A DNA stretch of 64,000 nucleotides, from assembly GCA_943789485.1 (NCBI GenBank), contig CALSUH010000017.1, positions 1-64,000 on the forward strand, read 5' to 3'. Position numbers and translations under genes: made by a program. The notes under the pieces were generated by a model. It was not told the DNA's origin. It searched no databases and worked only from the letters and a program-made list of their open reading frames with translations. This DNA comes from an uncultured Pseudomonadales bacterium. GTDB taxonomy: Bacteria; Pseudomonadota; Gammaproteobacteria; Pseudomonadales; Pseudohongiellaceae. Shown in pieces: positions 58,285 to 59,143 of this stretch (its first letter is position 1; every line of letters starts with the position of its first letter).

Positions 58285-58312
58285 TGGTCAGCCAGTTGAA
58301 TTCGTGTAAAAT
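58285..58312 (+). promoter_or_regulatory. Candidate promoter of tRNA-Arg
   Basis: TGGTCA at 58285-58290 and TAAAAT at 58307-58312 with a 16-base spacer, 42 bases before the tRNA. The -10 is good, the -35 weak. Confidence 0.45.
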
Positions 58313-58354
58313 ACACGCCGATTCGCTAGAGCCTCTGGCTCAGCGATCCATTCC

Positions 58355-58431
58355 GCGCCCGTAGCTCAACCGGATAGAGCACCGGCCTTCTAAGCCGGGG
58401 GTTCCAGGTTCGAGTCCTGGCGGGCGCACCA
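58355..58431 (+). tRNA. tRNA-Arg (anticodon TCT)
   Basis: 77-base cloverleaf with acceptor GCGCCCG/CGGGCGC, anticodon loop CTTCTAA reading TCT, T-arm CCAGGTTCGAGTCCTGG and encoded CCA. Its last CCA bases are already part of a long hairpin that follows. Confidence 0.98.
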
Positions 58432-58471
58432 ATACCAAAGAACCCGCCACGGCGGGTTCTTTGGTATTGGT
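58428..58471 (+). terminator. Perfect 21-bp hairpin directly behind tRNA-Arg
   Basis: Arms 58428-58448 and 58451-58471 are perfect reverse complements around two bases (AC). The core AAAGAACCCGCC/GGCGGGTTCTTT looks like an intrinsic terminator, with T-rich bases in the right arm. The left arm starts inside the tRNA CCA end, which is unusual. Confidence 0.75.
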
Positions 58472-58481
58472 TCACCCCGCC

Positions 58482-59011
58482 AGCAGGCGCAGAACCTGCG
58501 GTTCGAAAGCTGCGAAAGCAGCGCACACGGCCAACGGCCGCCCGCAGGGTCAGGAATTTGGCTTAGCCAAATATCTGATGAGTCCTAGCAGGCGCAGAAC
58601 CTGCGGTTCGACAAGCTGCGGAAGCAGCGCACACGGCCAACGGCCGCCCGCAGGGTCAGGAATTTGGCTTAGCCAAATATCTGATGAGTCCTAGCAGGCG
58701 CAGAACCTGCGGGCCGACAAGCTGCGGAAGCAGCGCACACGGCCAACGGCCGCCCGCAGGGTCAGGAATTTGGCTTAGCCAAATATCTGGTGAGTCCTAG
58801 CAGGCGCAGAACCTGCGGGCCGACAAGCTGCGGAAGCAGCGCACACGGCCAACGGCCGCCCGCAGGGTCAGGAATTTGGCTTAGCCAAATATCTGATGAG
58901 TCCTAGCAGGCGCAGAACCCGCGGGCCGACAAGCTGCGAAAGCAGCGCACACGGCTGCAAGCCGCCCCGTAAGGAGTGTAATTTGGCTAAGCCAGATTGC
59001 GAATGAGTCCT
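58482..59011 (+). repeat. Five tandem ~106-bp structured repeats downstream of tRNA-Arg
   Basis: Units begin with AGCAGGCGCAGAACC at 58482, 58587, 58693, 58799 and 58905; the first is 105 bases, the next three 106, the last about 107 and more diverged. Every unit contains the same series of short inverted repeats: CGCAG-AAC-CTGCG, GCTGC-GNAA-GCAGC, CGGCC-AAC-GGCCG and ATTTGGC-TTA-GCCAAAT. The loop of the second is GAAA or GGAA, both GNRA tetraloops. In the last unit the third stem reads CGGCT-GCA-AGCCG, a compensatory base-pair change. The unit length is not a multiple of three, which argues against coding. Function unknown. Confidence 0.9.
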
Positions 59012-59143
59012 GGCTTCCAGCTTTCTCTATGCATCAACGAAGCGGTGCCTAGTCAAATCACTAGCTGCAGCCCCTAGCAAAACCTAAAAAGAAGGAGTAG
59101 CTTCTCTTCTTCAAGTGACAAACTTTCAGTAGGGGAAAGCAAA

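What the first reader, a model, noticed from the sequence alone, without database searches (positions are those of the whole stretch)
58482..59011. Tandem 106-bp repeats behind tRNA-Arg fold into hairpins with structure-preserving changes
Five head-to-tail units each contain four short hairpins. Between units the second loop changes from GAAA to GGAA, both GNRA tetraloops, and in the last unit the third stem changes from CGGCC/GGCCG to CGGCT/AGCCG, a compensatory pair change. The fourth stem tolerates a change giving a G-U pair. This suggests selection for RNA structure on the plus strand. The layout recalls the E. coli tyrT locus, where tandem repeats behind a tRNA gene give rtT RNA and a small basic protein; here the unit is shorter and no frame is kept. 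It could be an unrecognised structured RNA family, a decoy or a gyrase/IHF-binding element.
Basis: partly seen in the sequence, partly recalled or inferred. Interest (0 to 1): 0.78.

Follow-up and report, generated by a model that had tools for sequence, protein, structure and literature searches.

The report
Hairpin repeats splitting tRNA 3' ends
Five copies of a small four-hairpin element sit behind a bacterial arginine tRNA gene; they belong to a large, little-noticed family whose copies often carry the end of the tRNA gene they sit behind, and the odd repeats behind an E. coli tyrosine tRNA gene are one known example.

Summary
The array is real: five 106-bp units behind tRNA-Arg(UCU). Each carries a ~75-nt core of four hairpins between TTCGA and AATC/GTCC, where a tRNA T-loop would be split. 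A covariance model finds the core in 50 of 84 genomes of the genus, 63 of 293 of the order and 41 of 369 of the class. Covariation is strong (522 two-sided changes, 128 in shuffles). Where a tRNA gene precedes a copy, its end usually lies about 70 nt upstream, and the flanks are degenerate sense and antisense copies of that tRNA's 3' end (0 of 5000 permutations). The E. coli rtT repeats (Rfam RtT) share this anatomy: a model built without them scores all four, and RtT and our first model meet at nine loci elsewhere. In E. coli one 178-bp unit is present or absent exactly between 19-nt tRNA-end repeats. So the array is a divergent rtT-type element, though it fails Rfam's RtT threshold. Few G-U pairs, loop types and non-tRNA copies lean to a DNA hairpin element; an RNA role is not excluded.

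The parts
58355..58431 (+). tRNA-Arg(UCU) gene; its 3' end resembles the flanking copies
   Evidence: ARAGORN and Rfam tRNA
58429..58470 (+). terminator-like palindrome that starts in the tRNA's CCA end
   Evidence: read from the sequence; the simple terminator scan did not call it
58463..58487 (+). R: degenerate reverse complement of the tRNA 3' end
58492..58504 (+). hairpin 0, GAACC-TGC-GGTTC, ending in the T-loop-like GGTTCGA
   Evidence: read from the sequence; similar feature in many relatives by eye
58502..58581 (+). core 1 (four hairpins: about 58509-58522, 58528-58540, 58541-58549, 58551-58577)
   Evidence: models R1 93.6 bits and R3 67.3 bits
58582..58596 (+). F2: degenerate sense copy of the tRNA 3' end (GTCCTAGCAGGCGCA; tRNA GTCCTGGCGGGCGCA), no CCA
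58607..58687 (+). core 2
58713..58793 (+). core 3
58819..58899 (+). core 4
58925..59006 (+). core 5, the divergent last unit
59007..59014 (+). F2 of the last unit, GTCCTGGC, identical to the tRNA
   Evidence: read from the sequence

Best explanation
The array is a tandem array of an rtT-type tRNA-linked hairpin element. Shown: a ~75-nt core of four hairpins lies between the two halves of a T-loop (GGTTCGA | core | AATCC), with a sense copy of the neighbouring tRNA's 3' end after it and an antisense copy before it; the flanks track the tRNA at each site; in E. coli a whole unit is present or absent exactly between tRNA 3'-end repeats, with the tRNA intact. Inferred: unit number changes by recombination between these 3'-end repeats, so the tRNA end is a safe harbour in which units cost little. 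Inferred: the core is kept mainly as a DNA hairpin module that has spread to new T-loops and to other sites; the flanks come from the target, perhaps by a small sense-antisense-sense duplication templated by the trailer palindrome and the T-arm palindrome. In some hosts the unit is also transcribed with the tRNA (rtT RNA in E. coli), as a by-product or a later use.
For: Structure: 95.3% of 664 cells paired and 100 two-sided changes against 23.3 in shuffles; 97.4% of 1990 cells and 522 against 128. Position: of 35 first-position copies, 25 start 66-75 nt after the tRNA end; 37 of 75 named sites lie 57-85 nt behind one. Flanks track the tRNA: F2 score 22.5 against 12.4 permuted, antisense R 18.1 against 12.5, 0 of 5000 each. 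T-loop splitting: cores in the T-loop of tRNA-like fragments. Link to rtT; nine loci in seven genomes hit by both R1 and Rfam RtT, three of the nine above RtT's cut-off. Presence/absence: 178 bp between 19-nt AATCCTTCCCCCACCACCA, E. coli ATCC 25922 against AREA_505; one model match in G101 against five in the window genome behind the same tRNA-Arg(UCU). Lean to DNA: in model-found cores (not pattern-picked) third-hairpin loops are GNA in 85 of 105 and second-hairpin triloops GNA in 48 of 76, and first-hairpin GNNA loops are 15 GNRA and 13 GNYA; G-U about 24 of 1938 standard cells (summed) against 69 of 1829 in tRNA stems; copies away from tRNA genes.
Against: No enzyme or movement was seen; presence/absence in E. 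coli can be plain deletion by homologous recombination. The G-U gap shrinks to 2.57% against 3.77% (p 0.017) when stems are found by free scanning. E. coli rtT is described as an RNA released from tRNA transcripts (PMC4986893, passages), and RtT appears in a table of RNA-seq-detected sRNAs of Pectobacterium (PMC4710047, passages). R1 with default filters found no match in the rtT locus of ATCC 25922 at E 0.1, so the sequence link to rtT is weak for R1 alone. R:F2 pairing beats permutation (5 of 5000) but not in every copy (median rank 0.23), so the origin of R is uncertain. Inverted flanks around 19 non-tRNA copies are only marginal (84 of 5000). Alignment A4 was fitted to R1's structure and leans to it.
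Confidence: 0.57

Rival explanations
1. Conserved structured RNA: the units are transcribed with or behind the tRNA, trimmed by tRNA-processing enzymes to a CCA-ended tRNA-like RNA with five hairpins on a closing stem, and act in trans, as proposed for rtT in the stringent response.
For: E. coli RttR is annotated ending at the CCA of the tRNA-like 3' end and folds as a closing stem with hairpins. RtT members are described in Pasteurellaceae and as released from tRNA transcripts (PMC4986893, passages) and are listed among RNA-seq-detected sRNAs in Pectobacterium (PMC4710047, passages). Strong covariation. The called tRNAs near the 38 cores are all on the core's strand.
Against: By a simple test 38 of 72 first-position copies keep a CCA near the F2 end and 51 of 72 have a T-run just upstream; the window's F2 has no CCA. 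Loops are GNNA without a clear excess of GNRA. Copies exist away from tRNA genes. Two E. coli strains examined have no unit at tyrT.
Confidence: 0.29
2. REP-like element mobilised by a Y1 (RAYT) transposase acting on the hairpins as single-stranded DNA.
For: Hairpins with loops suited to single-stranded DNA. Strong Y1_Tnp hits (E below 1e-9) co-occur with three or more elements in 21 of 35 genomes against 2 of 49 (p 1e-8; counts copied by hand into).
Against: Of 24 Y1 loci examined (some cut by contig ends), none has an element next to the transposase gene; one has an element about 2 kb away. The co-occurrence is confounded by clade and genome size.
Confidence: 0.08
3. Passive by-product: repeated duplication around the T-arm and trailer palindromes makes palindromes, and template-guided correction keeps them perfect without any function or mobility.
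For: Flanks are sense-antisense-sense copies of the tRNA end. Two-sided changes far exceed one-sided ones (522 against 20 cells).
Against: The unpaired words GAC and TGA, which the search pattern did not fix, are at 90% or more in 61 sequences behind different tRNAs, which needs common descent or selection.
Confidence: 0.05

Closest known systems
RtT RNA / rttR repeats of the E. coli tyrT operon (Rfam RF00391)
   Same: Unit behind a tRNA gene; antisense and sense copies of the tRNA 3' end; GGTTCGA-core-AATCC; hairpin order and TGA...GAATAA words; tandem copies of variable number
   Different: No RtT match is reported for the window array or its genome; it sits behind tRNA-Arg, has 106-bp instead of 178-bp units, has lost the CCA, and no transcript is known
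REP/BIME elements with RAYT transposases
   Same: Short imperfect palindromes in many intergenic copies (recalled)
   Different: T-loop address, tRNA-copied flanks, four hairpins, no adjacent RAYT gene
tRNA-gene attachment sites of integrative elements
   Same: Duplicate the tRNA 3' end at the insertion so that the tRNA survives (recalled)
   Different: The unit is about 100-180 bp in the window and in E. coli, too short for an integrase gene
AaHKsRNA22 (RF02902, Aggregatibacter sRNA)
   Same: Sub-threshold match over the core in L071 and L089 (31.7 and 30.9 bits)
   Different: Below its gathering score of 39.8; relation unproven

Membership tests
RtT (RF00391) | Reaches Rfam's gathering score of 45 bits | tested here: not met
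   No RtT match in the window at gathering or at E up to 10 over 58300-59140; 0 matches in the window genome at E 1e-4
RtT (RF00391) | Homologous core, shown by independent models meeting at the same loci | tested here: met
   R3 scores 4 of 4 rtT repeats of K-12, E 1.3e-6 to 1.5e-4, next 0.5; R1 and RtT share nine loci in seven genomes, three above RtT's cut-off. Against: R1 with default filters finds none in ATCC 25922
RtT (RF00391) | Tandem unit carries the tRNA 3'-terminal sequence | tested here: met
   13 of 15 letters in the window (GTCCTAGCAGGCGCA), degenerate and without CCA; exact 19 nt in E. coli
RtT (RF00391) | RNA released from the tRNA transcript | not testable with these tools
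   No expression data for this organism
REP/RAYT | Elements flank a Y1 transposase gene | tested here: not met
   24 Y1 loci: none with an element beside the gene, one about 2 kb away
Integron attC sites | R/L boxes and a nearby integron integrase | not tested
   Considered by eye only

The most novel reading that the evidence does not exclude
A proteobacteria-wide class of gene-less mobile hairpin DNA elements lives inside tRNA T-loops, rebuilding the host tRNA's 3' end at each site; the E. coli rtT RNA is one transcribed remnant of it.
Probability: 0.38. Interest if true: 0.82.

Novelty: new variant of a known kind. Interest (0 to 1): 0.66.

Why it matters
It turns an E. coli curiosity, the tyrT repeats, into one case of a large family with a clear address (the T-loop) and a clear rule (flanks resembling the local tRNA). 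That makes testable how gene-less elements persist beside essential tRNA genes and whether rtT RNA is a regulator or the transcript of a DNA element. It also warns that sRNA calls behind tRNA genes may be such elements.

Tried and rejected
GNRA tetraloops as a sign of RNA selection: not borne out. Over all 201 cores GNNA loops are 27 GNYA and 17 GNRA, but many of these cores were picked with a pattern; in the 120 model-found cores they are 13 and 15. The third-hairpin count (GNA in 163 of 186) is partly fixed by that pattern, so (85 of 105) is used. After this recount I lowered the leading odds slightly.

G-U depletion as proof of DNA: weakened by the tRNA control. The first two tRNA-control scripts parsed no tRNA and were replaced.

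A closing R:F2 stem as a universal RNA feature: significant overall but absent in many copies.

Hairpin targeting at non-tRNA copies: only marginal (84 of 5000).

RAYT mobilisation: no adjacency.

Model R2, built from a sequence-only alignment, got a poor structure (6 pairs) and was not used.

An empty site at tRNA-Arg(UCU) in the genus: of 30 loci fetched (of 66 genomes with a match), the simple pattern found the tRNA end in 17; some show no element, but flanks are too divergent for an exact empty site. E. coli gave one instead.

Viral contigs: one match only, without a called tRNA on the stretch held.

Paper searches (listings) showed no description of this family beyond RtT; the library holds only open-licence papers. 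Bosl and Kersten 1991 and Rossi 1981 were not read (recalled; the former also as cited in PMC4986893).

Full report
Observation. Tandem Repeats Finder reports one array in the window, period 106, 58482-58955; with the divergent fifth unit it runs to about 59011. It lies 51 nt behind tRNA-Arg(UCU), 58355-58431. Rfam gives nothing but tRNA at gathering and no RtT even at E up to 10 over 58300-59140.

Family. BLAST with the array found matches in 12 of 58 relatives, own genome included. Aligning 42 hits from fetched loci showed one core with covarying stems. A model (R1) from 32 cores finds 28 places in the window's own genome, and matches in 50 of 84 genomes of the genus (E 1e-3), 63 of 293 of the order (E 1e-4) and 41 of 369 of the class (E 1e-4), the own genome counted each time. 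Model R3, built from 110 matches outside the window genome (some of the same genus), finds matches in 54 of 398 genomes of the phylum (E 1e-5).

Structure. On A2, 95.3% of cells pair, with 100 two-sided changes against 23.3 in shuffles. On A4 the figures are 97.4% and 522 against 128, with 0 of 500 shuffles reaching either. A4 was fitted to R1's structure, so it leans to it; the slid controls fall to 32-54% paired. Recurrent unpaired words are TTCGA, GAC, TGA and GAATCA; there the pattern itself fixed TTCGA, GAATCA and the third hairpin, but not GAC and TGA.

Anatomy at tRNA genes. The core sits between GGTTCGA and AATCC, the two halves of a T-loop. Of 124 elements examined, 67 have a same-strand tRNA ending within 600 nt upstream. 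Of 35 distinct first-position copies (two from E. coli), 25 start 66-75 nt after the tRNA end. Of 75 named sites with at least 200 nt upstream (84 found), 37 have a tRNA end 57-85 nt upstream, one at 49, nine at 233-476, and 28 none within 2 kb; several of the last lie in tRNA fragments, by eye. The tRNAs are mostly Arg and Ser, also Glu, Lys, Val, Leu, Met, Tyr, Phe and Pro. F2, after the core, resembles the neighbouring tRNA's 3' end (mean score 22.5, permuted 12.4); R, before it, resembles its reverse complement (18.1, permuted 12.5); 0 of 5000 permutations reach either. For F2, no tRNA with another anticodon scores as high in 19 of 35 copies; for R in 11 of 35. R and F2 pair better than permuted pairs (5 of 5000) but not in every copy. 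In some places the core lies directly in the T-loop of a tRNA-like fragment: tRNA-Phe, tRNA-Arg; in one it replaces part of a tRNA-Gly-like sequence.

Link to E. coli rtT. The K-12 tyrT/tyrV repeats show the same order: antisense end, GAACC hairpin, GGTTCGA, four hairpins, GAATAA, ATCC...CCACCA. With filters off, R1 scores the four repeats 18.3 to 10.4 bits and R3 25.6 to 18.4 bits, the next R3 hit at E 0.5. With default filters R1 finds nothing in the one-unit locus of ATCC 25922. Rfam RtT, run over loci found by R1, reaches its threshold at L101 (49.9) and L099 (45.4). Over the class, RtT reaches 55 of 369 genomes at E 1e-4, 23 above its cut-off, none in the window genome. Nine of its places in seven genomes coincide with R1 places; three of the nine are above RtT's cut-off. 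A paper describes RtT as released from tRNA transcripts and reports members in Pasteurellaceae (PMC4986893, passages seen); another lists RtT among RNA-seq-detected sRNAs of Pectobacterium (PMC4710047, passages seen).

Gain and loss. Of 5426 E. coli genomes 5375 have some match to the tyrT stretch, whose query includes a tRNA-Tyr gene. The thirty rows listed run from five annotated RtT units to none. In ATCC 25922 one 178-bp unit follows the tRNA; in AREA_505 and MNCRE44 the tRNA is followed directly by nearly the same flank; the unit is bounded by the 19-nt tRNA end. In the window's genus one relative (G101) has a single model match behind the tRNA-Arg(UCU), with the same downstream flank by eye, and the window genome five.

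DNA or RNA. In the 120 model-found cores (15 lacked a CCC-GGG hairpin) third-hairpin loops are GNA in 85 of 105, second-hairpin triloops GNA in 48 of 76, and first-hairpin GNNA tetraloops are 15 GNRA and 13 GNYA; in 81 pattern-picked cores the last figures are 2 and 14 (stems found by a simple scan). d(GNA) triloops closed by C-G are a known stable DNA motif (PMC5815330, passages). G-U cells are about 24 of 1938 standard cells in A4 (summed) against 69 of 1829 in 109 tRNAs; by free scanning the elements have 85 of 3304, a small difference. Of 72 first-position copies 51 have a T5 run in the roughly 70 nt before the core and 38 a CCA near the F2 end. These lean to DNA, without proof.

Mobility. 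No enzyme is tied to the element. Y1 transposases co-occur with it (21 of 35 genomes with three or more elements against 2 of 49, counts copied) but do not adjoin it.

Verdict. The array is a divergent rtT-type element, a new variant of a known kind; what the core does, and whether it moves, stay open.

Noticed in passing
L022 2300-2760 and 12900-13230; L023 2320-2480 (G000:C6): Three tRNA-Phe 3'-fragments within 17 kb, each with an element, look like attachment sites of tandem islands.
   Followed up: no
L021 3600-4780 (G000:C8): A 352-bp unit holding a tRNA-Ser 3' half, terminator and element occurs three times in tandem, the first behind the one intact tRNA-Ser.
   Followed up: partly
L085 1501-1574, L154 557-637: Nearly whole tRNA-Arg-like sequences carry the core in their T-loop; probably pseudogenes.
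   Followed up: partly
L094, L095, L097, L100, L105: The core also occurs inside non-tRNA sequence, ending in ...GAATAA before TCCA; in L100 the flank looks like a dispersed hairpin repeat.
   Followed up: partly
L091, L099, L021, L101, L090 (RF04351); L071, L031, window 58355-58429 (RF04354): Two Rfam plastid UTR families match the antisense strand of tRNA genes below threshold, so they may contain antisense tRNA.
   Followed up: no
L101 1582-1790: Rfam sX4 (105.8 bits) covers a tRNA-Ser gene and its trailer; sX4 may be a tRNA precursor region.
   Followed up: no
L257 12313-12395 (IMGVR_UViG_2711768081_000001): The only viral-contig match; no tRNA called on the stretch held.
   Followed up: partly
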